Shown: piece after piece, positions 1-7,585 of the stretch
Position numbering within the stretch: the stretch's first letter is position 1
Layout of the letters: the number at the start of each line of letters is the position of its first letter
Position numbers and translations under genes: made by a program
Notes under the pieces: model-generated
Database searches by the model: none
The model's input: the letters and a program-made list of their open reading frames with translations, nothing else
What the model was told of the DNA's origin: nothing
Assembly: GCA_020433835.1 (NCBI GenBank)
Contig: JAGRBY010000354.1
Span: 1-7,585, forward strand
DNA: 7,585 nt
Source: Anaerolineae bacterium
GTDB taxonomy: Bacteria; Chloroflexota; Anaerolineae; 4572-78; J111
Direction of reading: 5' to 3'

Positions 1-272
1 CTCCACAAATAATACAGCGAAGTGAGTTATCCATAACTGTATTGTCTACCTTAATAAGATAACCTGCAATGGGCTGCTTAAGAAGTAATTCTTAAGTGAA
101 ACCTGCCAAATTCGGGGAAACCTAAGTTCTATATGGATAAGGCAATCCCGAGCCAAGCCCTACTAAACATAGGGAAGGTGTAGAGACTATACGGTAGGCC
201 CCTCCTAATCGAGGGTGAAGAGATAGTCCAGCCTACAAACCCGAAAGGGGCAATGAAAGTTGTAGTAGGATG
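1..272 (+). ncRNA. Group I self-splicing intron, subgroup IC3 (5' end outside window), in a tRNA(CAU) gene
   Basis: All conserved core elements of a group I ribozyme are present in order. P2 is an 8-bp stem (77-84 with 89-96) closed by a GUAA tetraloop. P3 pairs 102-107 with 193-198. P4 pairs about 112-116 with 147-151, and P5 pairs 121-123 with 140-142. P6a is CCCTA/TAGGG (158-162 with 170-174). P7, the guanosine-binding helix, pairs GACTAT 185-190 with ATAGTC 223-228. P8 pairs 200-204 with 211-215, and P9 pairs 232-236 with 265-269 around a GAAA-capped helix (240-249). The blocks AATTCGGGGAAACCTAAG, GGCAATCCCGAGCCAAG and AAGGTGTAGAGACTA closely resemble, from memory, the Azoarcus tRNA-Ile and cyanobacterial tRNA-Leu introns, which are IC3. 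The intron should end at the omega G, position 272. The internal guide is at 69-76. The 5' splice site is not seen, so P1 must contain more than about 70 extra bases. Confidence 0.93.
69..76 (+). other. Internal guide sequence (P1 3' strand plus P10 strand) of the group I intron
   Basis: GGCTG at 72-76 can pair with a 5' exon ending CGGCU. That is the exon end expected if tRNA positions 29-31 complement the visible 3' anticodon strand and are followed by C32 and U33. The pair at the splice site is the required G.U. The three bases just before, ATG at 69-71, pair with the first three bases of the 3' exon, CAU, forming P10. The eight-base stretch therefore aligns with both exons across the junction, with two G.U wobbles. 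The 3' exon is read directly; the 5' exon is predicted because it lies outside the window. Confidence 0.75.
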
Positions 273-312
273 CATAACCGGTTGGTCGCAGGTTCGAATC
301 CTGCAGGGCCCA
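273..312 (+). tRNA. 3' half of tRNA(CAU), probably tRNA-Ile2 (lysidine type); 5' half beyond left edge
   Basis: After the intron the sequence folds as a tRNA 3' half. It has anticodon CAU (273-275), A37 and A38, anticodon-stem strand CCGGT (278-282), variable loop TGGTC (283-287), T stem GCAGG/CCTGC (288-292, 300-304), T loop TTCGAAT, acceptor strand AGGGCCC (305-311) and discriminator A312. The next bases are TCA, so the CCA tail is not encoded. CCG at 39-41 lacks the three G-C pairs typical of initiator tRNA, and C72 would make a normal 1-72 pair, so initiator Met is unlikely. The acceptor strand and the TGGTC-GCAGG stretch resemble bacterial tRNA-Ile(CAU), whose C34 is changed to lysidine by TilS so that it reads AUA. 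Elongator Met remains possible. The 5' half should contain GGGCCCU at the acceptor and ACCGGCU at positions 27-33. Confidence 0.85.
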
Positions 313-316
313 TCAG

Positions 317-354
317 GAACACTCGATATTCATGTCGGGTGTTCTTTTATTTTT
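317..354 (+). terminator. Rho-independent terminator of the tRNA, with T-tract overlapping the PfkB gene end
   Basis: A 10-bp stem (317-326 with 335-344, one G.T pair) encloses an 8-base loop and is followed by TTTTATTTTT. It starts five bases after the tRNA discriminator. The T-tract covers the stop codon (347-349) of the convergent PfkB gene. Read on the minus strand, the same hairpin lies two bases past that stop but has no T-tract after it, so any terminator role for the PfkB transcript would be weak. Confidence 0.85.
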
Positions 355-1294
355 CTGCCGCTTGATTTAAGCGATGGATTGCCTCATTACGTAAGGTCGG
401 TATCGGCTGCGGCAGCCCCACCTGCTCGACCAAAAAACTGGCCGCGACCGCGCCATATAGCCCCGCTGTTCTTAAATCGCCCGTTTGGGCCCAACCAACC
501 AAAAAGCCACCACAAAAAGCGTTTCCGGCTCCCGTGACATCAACTACATTGGTTGTAATAGCGGGGATGTGGCAGGTTTCGCCCGATTGAGCATGATGGA
601 TGCGTGCGCCGGTTGGGCCTTGCCGCAGGGCGATGATGTTCGCCCCGGCATCGACCATGCGCTGTATGAGTTCGTCCGGCGCACCGGGGCCGACCAGGCT
701 TTCGGCTTCGAGCTGGTTGGGCGAGAAAATCTGCCCGGCGGAAAGCAGTGCCCGCAGTTCGGTATCACTTAAAGGGCGATGCGTCTCTCGAAAAGGTTCG
801 ATGCTGACAACTGCGCCCAATTCGCGCAGGGCGCGGATAAAGTTGAGATCGGGATCTTCGGGATGAACGCCCAGGTGAAAAGCTCGTGCCTGGCGATAAG
901 CCAGCGGCACGTTCTCCAGAGTTCGCCTCAATTGCCGACCTATGACTTGACCCGGTACGCGCCATTCCTGCGTTCGATACCCGTTTTCGGCAAGATGCTG
1001 CCATGCGCGGGGAGTCGGGCAGTTCGGAGTGTGGCGCAAGCCCTGGGTGTCGATGCCGGATTGGTGCAGCCAGTCCAAGGCGCTCGCTGGGAGATCGTCA
1101 CCAATGCCACTCACAAGCCCCACACCGTCGGCCCATAGGCGCATTCCGAACGCCGTCTGCGGACCACCGCCGCCTAAGGTTCCCAAGGCTGTCTGCCCAT
1201 TGGGAAAGACGATGTCATCGATAATCAAGGAAAATGTTACAAAGTCTATCGGTTGCGTTGTTGAAGAATTAGAAGGGCGACGTTCGATGGTCAT
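347..1294 (-). CDS. PfkB family carbohydrate/nucleoside kinase homologue, MAK32-like, with Asn at the catalytic Asp position
   Basis: The protein has 315 residues, normal for PfkB/ribokinase enzymes, which phosphorylate sugars or nucleosides with ATP in the cytosol. The N-terminal region has the substrate-side glycine stretch [11 protein letters not shown] (40-50) and GIGDD (63-67). The C-terminal ATP/anion-hole motif is DVTGAGNAF (252-260). In most PfkB enzymes this reads D-T-x-G-A-G-D, the last Asp being the catalytic base; here it is Asn258, encoded by AAC. The opening [14 protein letters not shown] and the GAGN form recall fungal MAK32-type PfkB proteins (family memory, not a search). The start lies seven bases after the nucleoside hydrolase stop with no clear Shine-Dalgarno, suggesting translational coupling. 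Beside psuG the natural guess is pseudouridine kinase, but the substitution makes ordinary kinase activity doubtful. The first 16 residues precede the recognisable fold. Confidence 0.88.
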
Positions 1295-1301
1295 AGAAAG
1301 A

Positions 1302-2255
1302 TTAGTCAGGTCGCGTAATGGTCTTCTGATAGAGACTCAGCAGCTCGGATACGTCAACATCGATACAGATATTGGTTGGCGGGATATCCGTCCAGCCGTT
1401 AGGGACAACCCACTGTTGGTGAAAATCCGGCAGCGTCATTCCGGCAGCGATCCCTTCGGTAATGACCCGTACCGGAGCCTGCCGAATGGTAAAGAGCGAG
1501 GGATTGATGACATACGCTATGGTCGAAGGATCGTGCATAGGCATCCCATCGAGTCCCGGATGAGCCTTTTGATAATAATCCATGTAGAACTGGCTGATAC
1601 TGTCGAGGAATTGCGTGGTTGCTGTGGCAGTTTTTAGGTCGGCCAGGTAAGCCCTGCTCATGACTGCTTTATGCGTAACATCGAGGCCGACCATGGTGAG
1701 CGGCCAACCGGCGGTGAAAACCACGTCGGCAGCGTGCGGATCTTTAAAGACGTTCGCCTCGGCAGCGGGGTTGATGTTGCCCCCCACTGTGGCCGCGCCG
1801 CCCATCAATACCACCCCGGCCACAGCATCGACCAGGCGAGGCTCAAGCGCCAAGGCCAACGCCAAATTGGTTAGCGGCCCTAAAGAAATCAGCGTAATTT
1901 TACCAGGGTTGGCCATAACGGTTTCGACAATGTACTGTGCGGCGGGTTTGTTGAGAGGCCGGCCTTGAGGTGGCGGTTGATGGGTATTGCCCAACCCATC
2001 GACACCGTGTACTTCCGAAGCCACGCTTTTGAGCGGTACAATCAGCGGTAGATCGGCCCCATGAGCCACAGAGATATCCGGCCGCCCGGCAAATTCGACC
2101 AATCGCAGTGCATTTTGGGTAGCCAGATCAGTATGCACATTGCCGTAAATGGTAGTCAACCCCATTAGCTCTATTTCCGGCGCTTTCAGGGCAAAGAGGA
2201 TGGCCATAGCATCATCAATGCCGGGATCTGTATCGATAACTATTTTTGTAGTCAT
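1302..2255 (-). CDS. Inosine/uridine-preferring nucleoside hydrolase family protein
   Basis: This cytosolic calcium-dependent enzyme hydrolyses the N-glycosidic bond of nucleosides to base and ribose. The hallmark DTDPGIDDA is at residues 8-16, holding the Asp cluster (D10, D14, D15) that binds Ca2+ and ribose. YGN follows at 37-39, and [12 protein letters not shown] at 124-135 is the usual metal and ribose segment. GGN (158-160) and EANVFKDP (166-173) supply further ribose contacts. HDP (241-243) carries the His that protonates leaving bases in IU-type hydrolases and the last metal-binding Asp. The 317-residue length is typical and no key residue is missing. The ATG has a good Shine-Dalgarno, GAGG at 2260-2263, four bases away. 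It lies 57 bases downstream of psuG and seven bases upstream of the PfkB gene, so the three are probably co-transcribed. Base preference cannot be read from the sequence; RihA/B/C-like activity on pyrimidine or purine nucleosides is equally possible. Confidence 0.95.
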
Positions 2256-2312
2256 TCTACCTCATTTGTAACCGTACGGCAGCCCACTAGCGCCAGCCAG
2301 CCCATCGGTGTT

Positions 2313-3215
2313 TTATTCAACCAGAGCCTGAGCAATTTGCGCCGCGACGTTGGCATTGTTTAATAGCAACGCCATGTTTGCTTTTTTACTTTGTGCTCCG
2401 GATAAGGTGCTGACGCGATCAAGCAAATAAGGCGTTACGGCTTTACCGGCTATCCCTTCGGCCACCAACTCGGCAATGGCCTGGTCGATTATTATCTGCG
2501 CTTTTTCAGCCGGCCATTCATCTTGCTCGGGAACCGGCACGGTAACCAGCATGCCTCCATCAAAATCCATGCTCTCACGCACTTTGATGATATCCGCTAT
2601 CTCCTGCGGGGTATCGACCCGCACGTCTAAGAGCAGCCCGCTGTGACGAGAGTAAAAAGCCGGCAGTTCATCGGTTTGATAGCCCAAAACCGGAACTCCA
2701 CGCGTCTCTAAGACCTCGAGCGTTAACGGCAAATCTAAAATAGCTTTAGCTCCGGCACAAACCACAGTGACACGTGTGCGTGACAGCTCGATCAAATCAG
2801 CCGACTCATCAAAAGGCTGACCGCGATGAACACCGCCGATACCGCCGGTGGCAAACACTTTGATACCGGCACAGCGTGCCACAATCATGGTACCGGCTAC
2901 GGTTGTAGCTCCGTTTTCTTTGCGAGCTACGGCAATCGGAATATCGCGGCGGGCGCATTTGCGTACATTTGAGGCGGTACTGAGATATTCTAGCTGGTCA
3001 TCCGTAAGGCCAACATAAATTTGTCCTTCTAAAATGGCAATGGTCGCCGGAACAGCACCCTGCCGGCGCACCGTAGCCTCGATGGCACGGGCAATCTCTA
3101 AATTTTCAGGCATAGGGAACCCATGGGTAATCAACGTCGATTCAAGGGCAACAACGGCTCTGTTTTCATTGAGGGCAGATTGTACTTCGGGGTGAAAGTT
3201 CAAATTAAGTTGCAT
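2313..3215 (-). CDS. psuG: Pseudouridine-5'-phosphate glycosidase
   Basis: PsuG cleaves the C-C glycosidic bond of pseudouridine 5'-phosphate to uracil and ribose 5-phosphate, in the cytosol, using Mn2+ and a catalytic Lys. The 300-residue protein matches the family along its whole length. ALESTLITHGFP (23-34) carries the acidic residue E25, and VRKCARRD (84-91) carries K86. ATGGIGGVHRG (122-132) is followed by the acidic DESADL (136-141) expected at the metal and phosphate site. CAGAKAILD (153-161) holds K157, which aligns with the Schiff-base lysine of E. coli PsuG, and the tail has GSNIALL-like KKANMALLLNN (278-288). The start ATG has AGGA at 3223-3226, seven bases upstream. It is the first gene of its unit, after a 305-base gap. 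It needs a kinase to make its substrate; the only candidate in view is the atypical PfkB protein two genes downstream. Confidence 0.97.
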   Translation of the reverse strand: MQLNLNFHPEVQSALNENRAVVALESTLITHGFPMPENLEIARAIEATVRRQGAVPATIAILEGQIYVGLTDDQLEYLSTASNVRKCARRDIPIAVARKENGATTVAGTMIVARCAGIKVFATGGIGGVHRGQPFDESADLIELSRTRVTVVCAGAKAILDLPLTLEVLETRGVPVLGYQTDELPAFYSRHSGLLLDVRVDTPQEIADIIKVRESMDFDGGMLVTVPVPEQDEWPAEKAQIIIDQAIAELVAEGIAGKAVTPYLLDRVSTLSGAQSKKANMALLLNNANVAAQIAQALVE

Positions 3216-3520
3216 TATCTATTCCTAGTAAATTTCAGTAAGATAGTTTGTTGATTGGACAGATGCATAGTTGTTTGTAAAAGGGCTTGGATAAACTAGT
3301 CATAGGGATTTGTTAGTTGTGCGTAGGTTTTTTGGGTCATTTTATACTCTGGAACATAAAGAATTATTCCAAAATCCACCCACGATGGGGTGGAAAGATG
3401 GTAAAAAATGCTACTGCTATGGTCTTATTACTTGGGGAAAAGTATACACGCCTTCAAGTAATGGTACCTGACTTTCTAAAGAATGTAAATCTTACGATAC
3501 ATTCTTGGCAGCATTACCAA
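3216..3520. other. AT-rich intergenic region between the transporter unit and the psuG unit
   Basis: I see no gene in these 305 bases; a plus-strand reading frame through it uses a TTG start, has no family resemblance and runs into the ADP-ribosylglycohydrolase gene. The stretch is clearly more AT-rich than its neighbours (one sampled line is 35% GC). Inverted repeats present are AGAATGTA/TACATTCT (3480-3487 with 3498-3505), ATTACTTG/CAAGTAAT (3427-3434 with 3455-3462), CCACCC/GGGTGG around 3376-3393, and TGGAA/TTCCA around 3349-3371. On the minus strand TATAAAAT at 3339-3346 could be a -10 box for psuG, giving a leader of about 120 bases, but no good -35 box lies at the right spacing. It probably holds the end of the upstream transcript and the promoter of psuG. 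Confidence 0.6.
3480..3505 (-). terminator. Possible weak terminator or 3' stem-loop after the ADP-ribosylglycohydrolase gene
   Basis: A perfect 8-bp stem (AGAATGTA with TACATTCT) with a 10-base loop begins 15 bases past the stop codon of the upstream gene, read on the minus strand. The stem is AT-rich and only TTTAG follows it, so it falls short of a convincing rho-independent terminator. A GC-richer hairpin followed by ATTTT lies further on, around 3376-3393. Confidence 0.3.
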
Positions 3521-4594
3521 TCAGTTTTCATCCAGAATATCATCCAACAGGCGAGTGCCAACATGCGGGGTAGCACTATGGTTACGAATAGCAACAGCAT
3601 AGAGACCCTCGGCGATTTCTTCGAGGTCATATTGAGGATTTGCCTGGCGTAATACATCGATATACTCAGCCGGGATCGAGTCGATCCCTCGCCAGGCTCC
3701 GGCCAGAACACAAGCCATCGCCCCCACAGCTGCGGCATCGCCTGATAAGGCCGATGCATAAATTGCTGCGCGTACAGGGTCGCCATCGGCCAGCGCCAGG
3801 ATACCGAATGCACACGGCACCGAGTCACCTACCGCTAACGTAACACCAATAAGGTCATGAAGATTTTGAATACGTTCCATCTCGGAATAGTTGGTGTCGG
3901 TGGCCAGTTGAATAGCAAAGTCGATCCGACGCCCAATGGATGGGCCATACCAGGGATGGCCGTGCGTTAGCCCTACGTTGGCCGCCCAGATAGCGGTATC
4001 GGCAATGTCTTCCAGCGTTGTGTTAGGCGTTAATGCCTGGGCCACTGCCGCTGCCACGGCACACGTGCCCGATACGGCGATATCGCTGTAATGGGTGGGA
4101 ATACAAGAAATAATGGCCTCTTCAACAGCGGCTTCAGGATCACCGGGGTGAATAAGCCCGATGGGACTAACGCGCACGGCGCTGTCCTTTGTATCGGTGT
4201 GCAAGCCGGTCAAATGGGGATCATCACCGGCTTTAAGCGCTTGAAACGCGTGCTGCACATTTTGGCTCAGCGCGGCACTGTGATGGCTGTCTAACTTATC
4301 GTACCAATCGATCAGAGTCTTCACGATGCGCTTGAGGGTTACCCGGCCTCGATTAACCACAATCATTTGCCCCAGAGCGATAGCCTGCTGCGTATCACCG
4401 GTTATCTGTCCCATTTTCAGGCGGCTGTAAAGCGGATGATTAGGGGCGGGTTCGACCAAGGTTTCAAGCCAGCCGCCGTACTTGTCCCAAGTTTGTTCCG
4501 GTTGAAAAAATGCCGGCATGGCCCAAGCGCTACCCAGGACCTGACCGAACAATGCTCCCGCAATATGAGGATAAACGTACGTTTCTATCTGCAT
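3521..4594 (-). CDS. ADP-ribosylglycohydrolase (ARH/DraG) family protein with altered metal-site residues
   Basis: The 357-residue all-helical protein matches the ARH/DraG family, whose active members use two Mg2+ or Mn2+ ions to release ADP-ribose. Recognisable blocks are PHIAGALFGQVLGSAWAMP (9-27), GQITGDTQQAIALG (62-75), RVSPIGLI (141-148), the THYSDIAVSGTCAVAAAVA helix (167-185) and the C-terminal SGDAAAVGAMACVLAGAW (284-301). In active members the first metal motif reads T-D-D-T; here it is T65-G66-D67-T68. The second normally reads G-D-T-D-T/S; here it is G285-D286-A287-A288-A289. About half of the usual ligands are therefore absent, although the fold looks intact and there is no frameshift. 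The ATG directly abuts the TAA of the upstream permease, so translation is coupled to the transporter and a role in nucleoside use is likely. The substrate is unknown; it may be a non-hydrolytic binder or act on another glycoside. Confidence 0.85.
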   Translation of the reverse strand: MQIETYVYPHIAGALFGQVLGSAWAMPAFFQPEQTWDKYGGWLETLVEPAPNHPLYSRLKMGQITGDTQQAIALGQMIVVNRGRVTLKRIVKTLIDWYDKLDSHHSAALSQNVQHAFQALKAGDDPHLTGLHTDTKDSAVRVSPIGLIHPGDPEAAVEEAIISCIPTHYSDIAVSGTCAVAAAVAQALTPNTTLEDIADTAIWAANVGLTHGHPWYGPSIGRRIDFAIQLATDTNYSEMERIQNLHDLIGVTLAVGDSVPCAFGILALADGDPVRAAIYASALSGDAAAVGAMACVLAGAWRGIDSIPAEYIDVLRQANPQYDLEEIAEGLYAVAIRNHSATPHVGTRLLDDILDEN

Positions 4595-5608
4595 TTAAAC
4601 GACTCTATGTTCTGATTCCATATTTTCTTGAAATTTGCGTGTATTCATAGCTATCTGGGCCTGCCGCCGGATATTGTAGATAACCAGAGCGGCAATCGTT
4701 ACAATCGGTGGGATCATGGTAATGAGCTGGCTGGGAATACTTAACGTTCCCAGCTGTGCTTCCAGAGCGCCGGCTGCCCCAAATATCAAGGCGGCGATAA
4801 GTGTCCCGGCCGGATTTCTATTTCCCAAAAAAACCGCAGCCAGTGCGATATAACCACGCCCGGCCGTCATATTGGTTTGAAACAGGGTCAGATAACCCAT
4901 ACTCAAGTTGATGCCGCCCAGAGCCGCCAAAAAGCCACTCATCAACAAGGCGATATACTGAACCCGTTTAACATTAATCCCCACCGATGCCGCTGCTATG
5001 GGATTTTCGCCCACGGCCCGCAGATGCGTGCCCAATCGGGTGCGATACAGAAAAAGCCACACCAAAGCCACCGAAAGAAAGGCCATATAGGTGACGATAT
5101 TATACCCGGTTAAATTCTCGCCGTTAAAAAGTTGCCCGACAAATGGAATAGCATCGACAAAAGGAATAACGATACTGGGCATCGCCGGGCTGGCCAGGGT
5201 TGAGGTACTGCCTTTGTCGCCGGTGAGGGCAAACATAATAAAGACCGTACCGCCGCTGGCTAAAATGTTGATGCCCAGAGCCGCCAAAATAACATCCGCG
5301 CCCAACTCTAAATGGAAAAAGGCGATAATCCAGGTTAAGATCAGACCGGATGCGACACCGGCTAAAGCCCCCAACCACGGATAGATCCACACCGGCAGTC
5401 CCGGCAGCCACTCCGGCCCCAGAGCGCCGATCACAACCCCAAAAAATGCCGCGGTCAGCATAATCCCTTCCAAGGCGATGTTGATGACCCCGGCCAATTC
5501 GGAGATAAGCCCACCCATAGCCGGCAGGATAATCGGCGTCGAGGTGCGGATGATCGTGGCGATGAAGGCCGCTGAAAAAATGCTGACTAACACAGTTTCA
5601 AACGTCAT
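4595..5608 (-). CDS. ABC transporter permease, BPD_transp_2 family (nucleoside uptake, NupQ-like)
   Basis: This is the second, shorter permease subunit of a BMP-type nucleoside importer in the cytoplasmic membrane. The 337 residues contain about eight to ten hydrophobic segments. Family blocks are GVINIALEGIMLTAAF (40-55), the cytoplasmic coupling region with RTRLGTHLRAVGENP (189-203) and ASVGINVKR (207-215), and AGRGYIALAAVFLGNRNP (249-266). This is the pattern of B. subtilis YufQ/NupQ and related permeases, as opposed to the ribose RbsC group. Its start codon lies three bases after the stop of the preceding permease, with a strong Shine-Dalgarno AAGGGG (5615-5620) six bases upstream that reaches up to that stop. 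The C-terminal tail (about 312-337) is charged and cytoplasmic. The gene ends flush against the next start codon. Nucleoside specificity is inferred from the family and from the salvage genes around it. Confidence 0.94.
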   Translation of the reverse strand: MTFETVLVSIFSAAFIATIIRTSTPIILPAMGGLISELAGVINIALEGIMLTAAFFGVVIGALGPEWLPGLPVWIYPWLGALAGVASGLILTWIIAFFHLELGADVILAALGINILASGGTVFIMFALTGDKGSTSTLASPAMPSIVIPFVDAIPFVGQLFNGENLTGYNIVTYMAFLSVALVWLFLYRTRLGTHLRAVGENPIAAASVGINVKRVQYIALLMSGFLAALGGINLSMGYLTLFQTNMTAGRGYIALAAVFLGNRNPAGTLIAALIFGAAGALEAQLGTLSIPSQLITMIPPIVTIAALVIYNIRRQAQIAMNTRKFQENMESEHRVV

Positions 5609-5611
5609 CGC

Positions 5612-6733
5612 TTACCCCTTGGCCTCGGCGCTGTCTAACATAACTTCCGGCGCTTGGCGACGTCGCCACCAGCGTTGCATAAGCGGCACAATCCGTTCGG
5701 CGGTGATAAACAAAATAATAATCGCCTGGATAACCAGCACCATCTCGCGCGTTACATCAGAAGAACGCTCCATAATTTGAGCGCCAGTGCGCAGGTAACC
5801 GTAAAAGAGGCCGGCAATCAGCACAAGTTTCGGATCGTTGCGAGCCAACAGCGCAACCACAATCCCTTCGAACCCGATATTGGGCGACAGGGTCAGGGTC
5901 AGTTGTTTGAGCAGCCCCATCGACAGATGCGCGCCGGCCAATCCGGCCAAAATGCCGCTGACACCCATACTAAGGGTGATGACCCGCTTGGCATTGATGC
6001 CGCCATATTCGGCAAAGCGTCGATTGGCCCCCAGCATGCGAATTTCATACCCCAACGGCGTGCGCGCCATCAAAAACCAAACGGCGACAATCGCCACTAT
6101 CGCTATAAAAAGGGCGATGGTCACCCGCGTGCCGGGAATGACCACCGGCAAAATGGCCGACTCCGGAAAAAATTCGGTACCGACATAGCCGGCCGTGGGA
6201 TCTTTGAGATAGCGCGTCAAAATAAACTGATAGAGCTGAATGGCGATGATGTTGAGCATCAACGTGCTGACAATCTCATCGGCATTCAGGTAGGCTTTGA
6301 GTGCACCAGGAATTAGCCCCCAGATATACCCCACAAGACCGGCTACCAACAAAGCCAACCCGATGTGAACAACCGGCGGGGCCGGAATATAGAGGCTGAC
6401 GATGCCCGCGCCCATAGCCCCCAAGGTGAGCTGGCCTTCGGCCCCCAGGCTGAACTGCCGGGCCTTGAAGACAATGGCCACCGACAGACCTAGCAGGATA
6501 AGGGTGATACTATCTTCGAGCCAATTACCAAAGCGATTGATGCCGCGCAGTTGCCAGCCGCCGTCGTCGGCAATGGATATTTTGGGCAGGGGACCGGTTA
6601 ACAGTTCGCGGTAAGCATCAACCGGATCGCTGCTAACCATGGTCGTAATGGCGAAACCCAACAGCAGGGCCGCCACAATAACCACCACTATGCGTATAAA
6701 TTCAAGCGAAAATTTTTGACGGGCTTCGGTCAT
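5612..6733 (-). CDS. ABC transporter permease, BPD_transp_2 family (nucleoside uptake, NupP-like)
   Basis: This is the first, longer permease subunit of the same importer. The 373 residues start with a membrane segment (about 11-32), then a long loop holding YRELLTGPL (41-49), a family-typical feature after the first helix. FSLGAEGQLTLGAMGA (94-109), LKAYLNADEIVSTLMLN (145-161), the coupling-loop TPLGYEIRMLGANRRFAEYGGIN (225-247) and GFEGIVVALLARNDP (287-301) are the conserved blocks of NupP/YufP-type permeases. The C-terminus (354-373) is basic then acidic and cytoplasmic. The ATG at 6733 follows a 79-base gap containing a 17-bp inverted repeat, and I see no clear Shine-Dalgarno before it, unlike the next permease. 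With the second permease it should form the heterodimeric membrane channel powered by the double-domain ATPase. Confidence 0.94.
   Translation of the reverse strand: MTEARQKFSLEFIRIVVVIVAALLLGFAITTMVSSDPVDAYRELLTGPLPKISIADDGGWQLRGINRFGNWLEDSITLILLGLSVAIVFKARQFSLGAEGQLTLGAMGAGIVSLYIPAPPVVHIGLALLVAGLVGYIWGLIPGALKAYLNADEIVSTLMLNIIAIQLYQFILTRYLKDPTAGYVGTEFFPESAILPVVIPGTRVTIALFIAIVAIVAVWFLMARTPLGYEIRMLGANRRFAEYGGINAKRVITLSMGVSGILAGLAGAHLSMGLLKQLTLTLSPNIGFEGIVVALLARNDPKLVLIAGLFYGYLRTGAQIMERSSDVTREMVLVIQAIIILFITAERIVPLMQRWWRRRQAPEVMLDSAEAKG
5615..5620 (-). promoter_or_regulatory. Strong Shine-Dalgarno for the second permease
   Basis: AAGGGG lies immediately before the TAA of the first permease and six bases before the ATG of the second, so the last two sense codons of one gene form the ribosome binding site of the next. 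This fixes the start at 5608 and indicates tight coupling of the two membrane subunits. Confidence 0.75.
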
Positions 6734-6755
6734 AATGGATATCTATTCAGTAAAC

Positions 6756-6804
6756 CAGGTGACTGGCACTTTATTAAGGGATGAGTAAAAGTGCCAGTCA
6801 CCTG
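6756..6804. repeat. Perfect 17-bp inverted repeat (REP-like hairpin) between ATPase and permease genes
   Basis: The left arm CAGGTGACTGGCACTTT (6756-6772) and right arm AAAGTGCCAGTCACCTG (6788-6804) are exact reverse complements around a 15-base spacer. The hairpin fills most of the 79-base gap between two genes that should be co-transcribed. Neither strand has a T-tract after it, so it is not a standard terminator. GTGCCAGTCACC-type palindromes recall REP sequences mobilised by RAYT (Y1) transposases (inference from memory). It could also protect the upstream message from 3' decay and set the ATPase-to-permease ratio. Confidence 0.8.
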
Positions 6805-6812
6805 AACAGTTA

Positions 6813-7585
6813 TTATAAGGCTTGCTCTTGCTGCTCCGGCGATTGGCGTTTGAGGCCAAGCATGTAAAGCCCTAACGCTTCTTCACTTAAGCCGGGCCGA
6901 TTTTGAAAAAGTGCCACGATTTCCCCTTTGTACAAAACGGCGATCCGGTCGGCCAGGCTGAGCAGTTCGGCCAAATCGGCAGAGATGAGCAGCACCGCTT
7001 TGCCCTTATTGCGCTCCTCAACCAACTGCCGCCGGACAAACTCACTTGCGCCGATATCAACGCCCCGCGTCGGCTGGGCGGCGATCAACAGCACCGGGTC
7101 GGCGGAAAACTCGCGAGCGATGATCACCTTTTGCATATTGCCGCCCGACAGCGACCCGATCGGTGCTTCCGTTCCGGCGGCCCGGATATCAAACTTTTGC
7201 ATCAACTGTTCGGCCTGCCGACGAATTTGGCGCAAACTCACCGCGCCATAGCGAGCAAATGGAGGCCGATAGTAGCGATCAACCACCAAATTATCGGCGA
7301 TGCTGGCTTCCAGAGCAGCGCCGTTGGTCAGCCGATCTTCAGGAATATGCGCCACCCCGGCCTGGCGCACGTGGCGCGGTCCCCGGCCCAAGATCGATTG
7401 GCCGTTGACGGTGGCTTCGCCGGTGGTCGGCGGCTGTAAACCGCTTAAAACTTCGGCCAGTTGGGTTTGACCATTGCCCTCCACCCCGGCAATGCCCAAA
7501 ATTTCGCCGCGATGCACCTGAAACGATACATCGCGCAGCAACGGTCGGCCCGTAGGCGATACGTAACTCAAACCTTTTACCTGCA
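6813..7585 (-). CDS. ABC transporter ATP-binding protein, C-terminal nucleotide-binding domain (partial; nucleoside/BMP type)
   Basis: The reading frame stays open to the right edge; a TTG at 7571 is internal, since in-frame codons QVKG precede it. Family members have two tandem ATPase domains in about 500 residues, and only the second is in view, some 257 residues. Visible blocks, numbered from the TTG codon, are LLRDVSFQVHRGEI (11-24), a Walker A-like GVEGNGQTQL (29-38) without the nucleotide-binding Lys, the signature LSGGNMQK (141-148) and a Walker B-like LLIAAQPTRGVD (161-172) in which the usual Asp-Glu is Ala-Gln. These changes are normal for the second domain of NupO/YufO-type ATPases, so hydrolysis would rest on the domain outside the window. 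The protein sits on the cytoplasmic face and drives the two permeases downstream. The BMP-family binding protein expected with it is not in view. Confidence 0.95.
   Translation of the reverse strand, partial: QVKGLSYVSPTGRPLLRDVSFQVHRGEILGIAGVEGNGQTQLAEVLSGLQPPTTGEATVNGQSILGRGPRHVRQAGVAHIPEDRLTNGAALEASIADNLVVDRYYRPPFARYGAVSLRQIRRQAEQLMQKFDIRAAGTEAPIGSLSGGNMQKVIIAREFSADPVLLIAAQPTRGVDIGASEFVRRQLVEERNKGKAVLLISADLAELLSLADRIAVLYKGEIVALFQNRPGLSEEALGLYMLGLKRQSPEQQEQAL

What the first reader, a model, noticed from the sequence alone, without database searches (positions are those of the whole stretch)
69..282. Group I intron apparently inserted between U33 and C34 of tRNA(CAU), with a guide matching both exons
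The only G placed correctly for an intron 3' end is G272, directly before CAU, because position 33 of a tRNA must be U and here a G precedes the anticodon. Independently, 72-76 (GGCTG) pairs with the predicted 5' exon CGGCU, and 69-71 (ATG) pairs with the 3' exon CAU. Two independent signals thus give the same junction. As I recall, the well-studied Azoarcus tRNA-Ile(CAU) intron follows the anticodon (5' exon ending CAU) and tRNA-Leu introns lie inside it, so a position just before the anticodon would be a different, possibly independent insertion site.
Basis: partly seen in the sequence, partly recalled or inferred. Interest (0 to 1): 0.75.

Follow-up and report, generated by a model that had tools for sequence, protein, structure and literature searches.

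The report
Self-splicing intron just before tRNA anticodon
A bacterial tRNA gene for isoleucine is interrupted, just before its three-letter decoding site, by an RNA that should cut itself out; relatives show that the site is real, differs from the textbook one in the same gene, and is shared with another tRNA.

Summary
Window 54-265 matches the group I intron model (79.6 bits); a tRNA(CAU) 3' half begins at C273, right after G272. The 5' half is outside the window and no genome is held. Relatives settle the junction: in 18 Chloroflexota genomes with both halves the same tRNA-Ile2 gene reads ...CGGCU|intron...G|CAUAAC, so the intron follows U33, and about 110 listed intronless matches begin exactly at window 273 (hand count). 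The site is not unique to this gene: 16 tRNA-fMet introns of the same phylum use it. It does differ from the U36|A37 site of 25 tRNA-Ile2 introns in a Comamonadaceae-containing family. U36 introns of both phyla form one clade (98/90) apart from the U33 introns. Six relatives carry an antisense HNH endonuclease gene in the P1 loop; window 34-1 (minus) resembles its start. The 3'-exon match at 69-71 is real but poorly conserved among tRNA-Ile2 introns. Splicing is untested. New variant of a known kind.

The parts
1..272 (+). group I intron, 3' part; its 5' end lies upstream of the window
   Evidence: RF00028 at 54-265, 79.6 bits; junction from relatives
1..34 (-). first 11 codons (MDNSLRCIICG) of an antisense ORF cut by the window edge, resembling the HNH ORF of six relatives
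   Evidence: read; relatives aligned (MxxxSNCIVCG); PHROGs HNH match of the relatives
41..46 (-). candidate -10 box (GACAAT) of the antisense gene, 6 bases before its ATG; weak in the window
   Evidence: 4 of 6 here, 4-6 of 6 at the same place in five relatives; one search found no promoter-like site in window 1-400
64..69 (-). candidate -35 box (TTGCAG), next to the guide; weak in the window
   Evidence: 3 of 6 here
69..71 (+). P10 strand (AUG) that can pair with the 3' exon CAU
   Evidence: complete in 5 of 17 tRNA-Ile2 U33 introns
72..76 (+). internal guide (GGCUG) that pairs with 5' exon CGGCU, U33 opposite G72
   Evidence: same pentamer in 13 of 17 tRNA-Ile2 and 11 of 14 tRNA-fMet introns (by eye)
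77..96 (+). P2 hairpin
   Evidence: fold; compensatory changes in relatives
102..107 (+). P3, 5' strand (CCUGCC)
193..198 (+). P3, 3' strand (GGUAGG)
272..272 (+). last intron base, the conserved G
   Evidence: intronless tRNAs match from 273 on; G before CAT in 18 of 18 relatives (the junction rule required a G)
273..312 (+). tRNA-Ile2(CAU) 3' half, C34 to A73
315..346 (+). terminator-like hairpin after the tRNA
   Evidence: consensus match only

Best explanation
[quoted passage not shown] Its guide (72-76) pairs with the end of the 5' exon (CGGCU, U33 opposite G72), an outside guanosine attacks after U33, and the freed U33 then attacks after G272, giving the loop CU-CAU-AA. It belongs to introns that use the loop CU|CAUAA and are found in tRNA-Ile2 and tRNA-fMet genes, and it is not of the lineage that sits at U36|A37 of tRNA-Ile2. 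Relatives carry in the P1 loop an HNH homing endonuclease gene on the opposite strand, which would spread the intron into empty tRNA-Ile2 genes; the window holds the start of such a gene. Shown by sequence: intron core, junction, shared site, a separate U36 clade, the antisense gene under selection in relatives. Inferred: splicing, homing, and that the window's own gene is intact beyond the edge.
For: RF00028 79.6 bits; fold z -4.28; 20 of 50 pairs with compensatory changes. Junction: 18 of 18 tRNA-Ile2 U33-lineage introns with both halves; about 110 intronless matches starting at window 273. Isotype: 5 of 8 listed E. coli rows over an intronless relative are annotated tRNA-Ile at 81-84%. No intact tRNA-Ile2 among 44 listed CAU matches in 16 host genomes. 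Antisense gene: codon-position differences 430/282/987 of 1840, dN/dS 0.04-0.09 in the 5 of 15 pairs that could be estimated; PHROGs HNH families in 6 of 6. Lineage: U36 clade 98/90.
Against: No splicing data. The 5' half of this very gene is unseen. The 3'-exon pairing is complete in 5 of 17 relatives, and guide run length does not beat foreign exons. Pfam gives only weak HNH hits. The window's antisense promoter scores 7 of 12 and no better than shuffles, so its gene may be dying. Kinship of tRNA-Ile2 U33 and tRNA-fMet introns as one clade is not shown (AU p 0.39 when held together; moderate 65/88), and holding all tRNA-Ile2 introns together is not rejected (p 0.32).
Confidence: 0.88

Rival explanations
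1. The intron lies after the anticodon, as in Azoarcus-type tRNA-Ile2 introns, and CAT 273-275 is part of the intron end.
For: That site exists in tRNA-Ile2: 25 introns in a Comamonadaceae-containing family and two in the window's likely class (L231, L232).
Against: About 110 intronless tRNA matches start at 273, not 276; base 275 is T, not the required G; the 5' exons of relatives end CGGCU, not CAU.
Confidence: 0.02
2. The intron is a dead remnant in a broken tRNA gene that no longer splices.
For: The 5' part is unseen; the antisense promoter is weak in the window.
Against: Core helices intact with compensatory changes across relatives; the tRNA 3' half is intact; host genomes of relatives show no second tRNA-Ile2 in a pattern search (drafts, 16 of the 18 genomes).
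Confidence: 0.06
3. The gene is an elongator or initiator methionine tRNA, not tRNA-Ile2.
For: The resolved Met and Ile2 genes with CAU share the loop CUCAUAA.
Against: An intronless relative matches genes annotated tRNA-Ile in 5 of 8 listed E. coli rows (the other 3 are two-piece joins over other tRNAs); host genomes of relatives list other intact CAU tRNAs with different stems.
Confidence: 0.05

Closest known systems
tRNA-fMet group I introns with I-Ssp6803I (Synechocystis; Chloroflexota relatives here)
   Same: In Chloroflexota: same U33|C34 site in 16 of 16 resolved, same guide pentamer in 11 of 14. A nuclease gene in P1 also in Synechocystis (PMC3073962, passage).
   Different: tRNA-Ile2 instead of tRNA-fMet; antisense HNH gene instead of a sense PD-(D/E)XK gene. 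The exact junction in Synechocystis is recalled and was not read here.
Azoarcus-type tRNA-Ile2(CAU) introns of proteobacteria
   Same: Same tRNA gene, group I core, similar size without the nuclease gene.
   Different: Site U36|A37 in 25 of 25 resolved; separate clade.
tRNA-Leu(UAA) introns
   Same: Group I introns in an anticodon loop.
   Different: Inside the anticodon, U34|A35, in 6 of 6 resolved.
Nuclear rDNA group I introns with antisense nuclease genes (PMC9548176, title and start of abstract seen in a listing only)
   Same: Nuclease gene on the strand opposite the ribozyme.
   Different: Fungal and protist rDNA with His-Cys nucleases.

Membership tests
Group I introns (RF00028) | Conserved catalytic core | tested here: met
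   79.6 bits, full model, cut-off 50
Group I introns (RF00028) | Guide pairing with the 5' exon, U opposite G at the splice site, G at the intron end | tested here: met
   read; the 5' exon is from relatives, and the search rule required U and G
Group I introns (RF00028) | Self-splicing | not testable with these tools
   no RNA data
IC3 subgroup | Subgroup-specific peripheral structure | not tested
   no subgroup models were run; size and tRNA host fit, from recall
Azoarcus-type tRNA-Ile2 introns | Insertion after U36 | tested here: not met
Azoarcus-type tRNA-Ile2 introns | Common clade with U36 introns | tested here: inconclusive
   U36 introns of both phyla are one clade without the U33 introns (98/90), but holding all tRNA-Ile2 introns together is not rejected (p 0.32)
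tRNA-fMet intron family | Insertion at U33|C34 with the GGCUG guide | tested here: met
tRNA-fMet intron family | I-Ssp6803I-type nuclease | tested here: not met
   six tRNA-Ile2 relatives carry an antisense HNH ORF instead; the window shows only its first 11 codons
tRNA-fMet intron family | Common clade | tested here: inconclusive
   tRNA-fMet introns are their own clade (99/96); joining them with tRNA-Ile2 U33 is neither shown nor rejected (p 0.39)

The most novel reading that the evidence does not exclude
Bacterial tRNA introns follow the insertion site rather than the host phylum: one set of introns owns CU|CAUAA and moves between tRNA-fMet and tRNA-Ile2 because loop and guide are the same, changing its nuclease on the way (sense PD-(D/E)XK against antisense HNH driven by its own leaderless promoter set beside the guide), while another lineage owns U36|A37 of the same tRNA-Ile2 in two phyla.
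Probability: 0.45. Interest if true: 0.58.

Novelty: new variant of a known kind. Interest (0 to 1): 0.45.

Why it matters
One tRNA gene has two intron sites three bases apart, used by what look like different intron lineages, even within one bacterial class. That is a natural test of whether guide pairing, nuclease choice or host ancestry decides where group I introns settle. It also adds tRNA-Ile2 to the genes interrupted just before the anticodon, where a gene finder without an intron model sees nothing. An antisense, apparently leaderless nuclease gene would let a bacterial intron express its mobility protein without the message running through the ribozyme.

Tried and rejected
Whole genome of the window: none held. 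The nearest genome (G001, L001) gave no match to window 1-345. The Synechocystis junction: the primary papers I asked for are not held; passages of held papers give host gene and P1 placement but I saw no junction; a plasmid search with a relative of the nuclease found nothing. I reached no cyanobacterial genome, so that comparison stays recalled. A wider look at another class (of G746, titled Azospirillum) did not complete. Guide run length as a statistic was dropped: it does not separate own from foreign exons. The tree lost 30 of 73 rows to a poor motif cut; the U36 split persists there (100/100), and the test of tRNA-Ile2 U33 with the two U36 introns of the same class gave p 0.083, weaker than the 0.023. 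That grouping was first seen in the tree, so the test was not named in advance. Trees used the last 205 bases, which cuts rows with long insertions; repairs this for L224 and L225.

Rows left out before counts: L093 and L179; L093, L121, L158, L179. L079, L092 and L135 are one locus, counted once. L086, L090, L091, L095 carry tRNA introns that the junction rule did not resolve; L093 resolved with an odd loop and is not in the site counts given here; L173 and L176 were not resolved. L230 looks like a tRNA-Ile2 U36 intron but failed the rule. L136/L236 and L153/L226 show a tRNA-Ile2 3' half after an intron but no 5' half. L227 and L229 gave no tRNA. In one search, 14 of the 30 loci gave no intron-bearing tRNA (L094, L096-L099, L101, L102, L106-L112, L116 and L119 among them) and their host genes were not identified.

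Literature: nothing on tRNA-Ile2 introns at U33|C34 or on group I introns in Chloroflexi tRNA genes showed in the listings. These cover open-licence papers, listings were capped, and supplements could not be opened, so this is weak evidence of novelty. PMC8450103 (passages) reports tRNA-fMet or tRNA-Ile2 genes missed because of group I introns in 36 genomes, naming Acidovorax and Burkholderia for tRNA-Ile2; Chloroflexi cases may be among those not named. PMC4033280 (passages) places most bacterial tRNA introns at 37/38, which does not agree with the positions found here.

Full report
What is there. The window opens inside a group I intron. Rfam places Intron_gpI at 54-265 with 79.6 bits over the complete model. 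ARAGORN without an intron option finds no tRNA, since only the 3' half, 273-312, lies in the window. A terminator-like hairpin follows at 315-346.

Finding the other half. No whole genome is held for the window. A neighbouring gene (2313-3215, minus) pulled out relatives; the nearest record is an Anaerolineae MAG at 94%, whose genome gave no match to window 1-345. The next, titled Anaerolineales H5_CFX5 (G002), holds the intron at 79% identity with a 5' half. A DNA search of 396 genomes of that genome's class with window 60-313 did two things. About 110 listed matches (hand count, listing cut) are tRNAs that begin exactly at window base 273. And 17 genomes gave a match running from the intron to the tRNA end; one of these (G449, L223) proved to be a tRNA-Tyr and one (G458, L136/L236) lacks a 5' half.

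The junction. For each locus I listed the ways to join a 5' and a 3' half into a tRNA with a five-pair anticodon stem and a seven-base loop, requiring T before the intron and G at its end. Eighteen tRNA-Ile2 introns of this kind have both halves, 17 from genomes of that class or G002 itself and one (L100, G021) known only to be of the same phylum; all 18 lie after U33. Their 5' halves end GCCGGCT (10), ACCGGCT (5) or GTCGGCT (3); the intron starts with C in 11 and T in 7. L133, nearest to the window by path in three of five trees (L139), starts GGGCCCT and ends ACCGGCT, as predicted. A few loci also gave solutions with implausible loops.

Which tRNA. An intronless relative (L154) matches E. 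coli genes annotated tRNA-Ile in 5 of 8 listed rows at 81-84%; the other three rows are two-piece joins over other tRNAs. In 16 of the 18 genomes a pattern search listed 44 CAU-loop matches, none with the tRNA-Ile2 3' half; one genome (G699) gave none at all, and these are drafts. Splicing probably has to work for AUA decoding; that is inference.

Comparison of sites. In 400 genomes of the phylum RF00028 rang in 38, over the cut-off in 24. From this and the later searches I resolved 16 tRNA-fMet introns, all at U33|C34. In 299 genomes of the family of G744 (titled Comamonadaceae) RF00028 rang in 35; of 30 loci taken, 25 are CAU introns and all 25 lie after U36. Leucine introns lie at 34|35 (6) and tyrosine introns at 35|36 (3). 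Two genomes of the class of G002 have tRNA-Ile2 introns after U36 (L231, L232).

Kinship. In the final tree of 71 introns the U36 introns of both phyla form one clade (98/90) and the tRNA-fMet introns another (99/96). Holding the two U36 introns of G002's class together with the U33 tRNA-Ile2 introns is rejected (AU p 0.023; the grouping was tested after one search had shown it, and a poorer tree gave p 0.083). Holding all tRNA-Ile2 introns together is not rejected (p 0.32), nor is tRNA-Ile2 U33 as one clade (p 0.52), nor tRNA-Ile2 U33 plus tRNA-fMet (p 0.39). An earlier tree of 60 rows had tRNA-Ile2 U33 as a clade (86/98). So lineage goes with site for U36, and probably for U33; which of tRNA-fMet and tRNA-Ile2 came first is open.

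Guide. GGCUG stands in 13 of 17 tRNA-Ile2 and 11 of 14 tRNA-fMet introns, GUG in 25 of 25 U36 introns (by eye; the script picks the best-pairing place, so the first bases are partly given by construction). The AUG before it, able to pair with CAU, is complete in 5 of 17 tRNA-Ile2 introns and 10 of 14 tRNA-fMet introns (by eye). Run length alone does not discriminate.

The passenger gene. Six tRNA-Ile2 introns carry an ORF of about 124 codons on the strand opposite the ribozyme, between the 5' splice site and the guide. All six match HNH endonuclease families of PHROGs (best 1.8e-22); Pfam gives weak hits only, the PDB a nicking endonuclease at E 0.034. Differences fall 430/282/987 on codon positions 1/2/3 in 1840 codon comparisons, and dN/dS is 0.04-0.09 in the 5 of 15 pairs where dS could be estimated. 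Seven of the 14 tRNA-fMet introns carry a long ORF on the sense strand; that of L080 matches I-Ssp6803I (2ost_A, 4.6e-64), the others look alike by eye. In five of five relatives scanned (L137 was not) the best sigma-70-like promoter upstream of the antisense ATG scores 10 of 12 and ends six bases before it; summed over those five and the window the match is 56 of 72 at that offset and at most 28 at the 29 others. That spacing suggests a leaderless message. The window keeps the first 11 codons (34 to 1, minus) but scores 7 of 12 there, and a consensus scan of window 1-400 found no promoter, so whether its gene is alive is unknown.

Verdict. It is not new among tRNA introns, since tRNA-fMet introns use it. 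What I did not find reported, in the open-licence listings searched, is its use in tRNA-Ile2, with an antisense HNH gene.

Noticed in passing
L231 (G505:C56), L232 (G664:C3); also L230 (G610:C443): tRNA-Ile2 introns at U36|A37 within the class of G002 that group with those of the Comamonadaceae-containing family; L230 looks alike but failed the junction rule.
   Followed up: partly
L121, L223, L235: Group I introns at 35|36 of tRNA-Tyr(GUA); L121's carries a sense ORF of 171 codons. G021 has three tRNA introns: tRNA-Ile2, tRNA-fMet and tRNA-Tyr.
   Followed up: partly
L090, L091, L093, L095: Introns in tRNA-like genes with U1-A72 and G73 (Asn-like) whose anticodon and junction could not be settled; ARAGORN calls three of them Thr.
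   Followed up: no
L189 (G858:C6): A group I intron at 34|35 of a tRNA read as Thr(UGU) in the Comamonadaceae-containing family.
   Followed up: no
L222 (NZ_CP135650.1 25499-25641): About 140 bases resembling a group I intron core at about 70% on many enterobacterial plasmids (1252 records with some match); in the one record looked at it lies near aac(3)-IId. Only described.
   Followed up: no
window 347-7571, minus strand: Convergent genes: PfkB-type kinase, nucleoside hydrolase, a sugar-type permease and an ABC ATPase (Pfam); the protein at 2313-3215 looks like a pseudouridine-5'-phosphate glycosidase (recalled, not searched). It reads like a nucleoside uptake and use cluster.
   Followed up: no
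P0001-P0120: 5681 proteins match the antisense HNH profile at E <= 0.001, many of those listed on short contigs; how many sit in tRNA introns is unknown.
   Followed up: no
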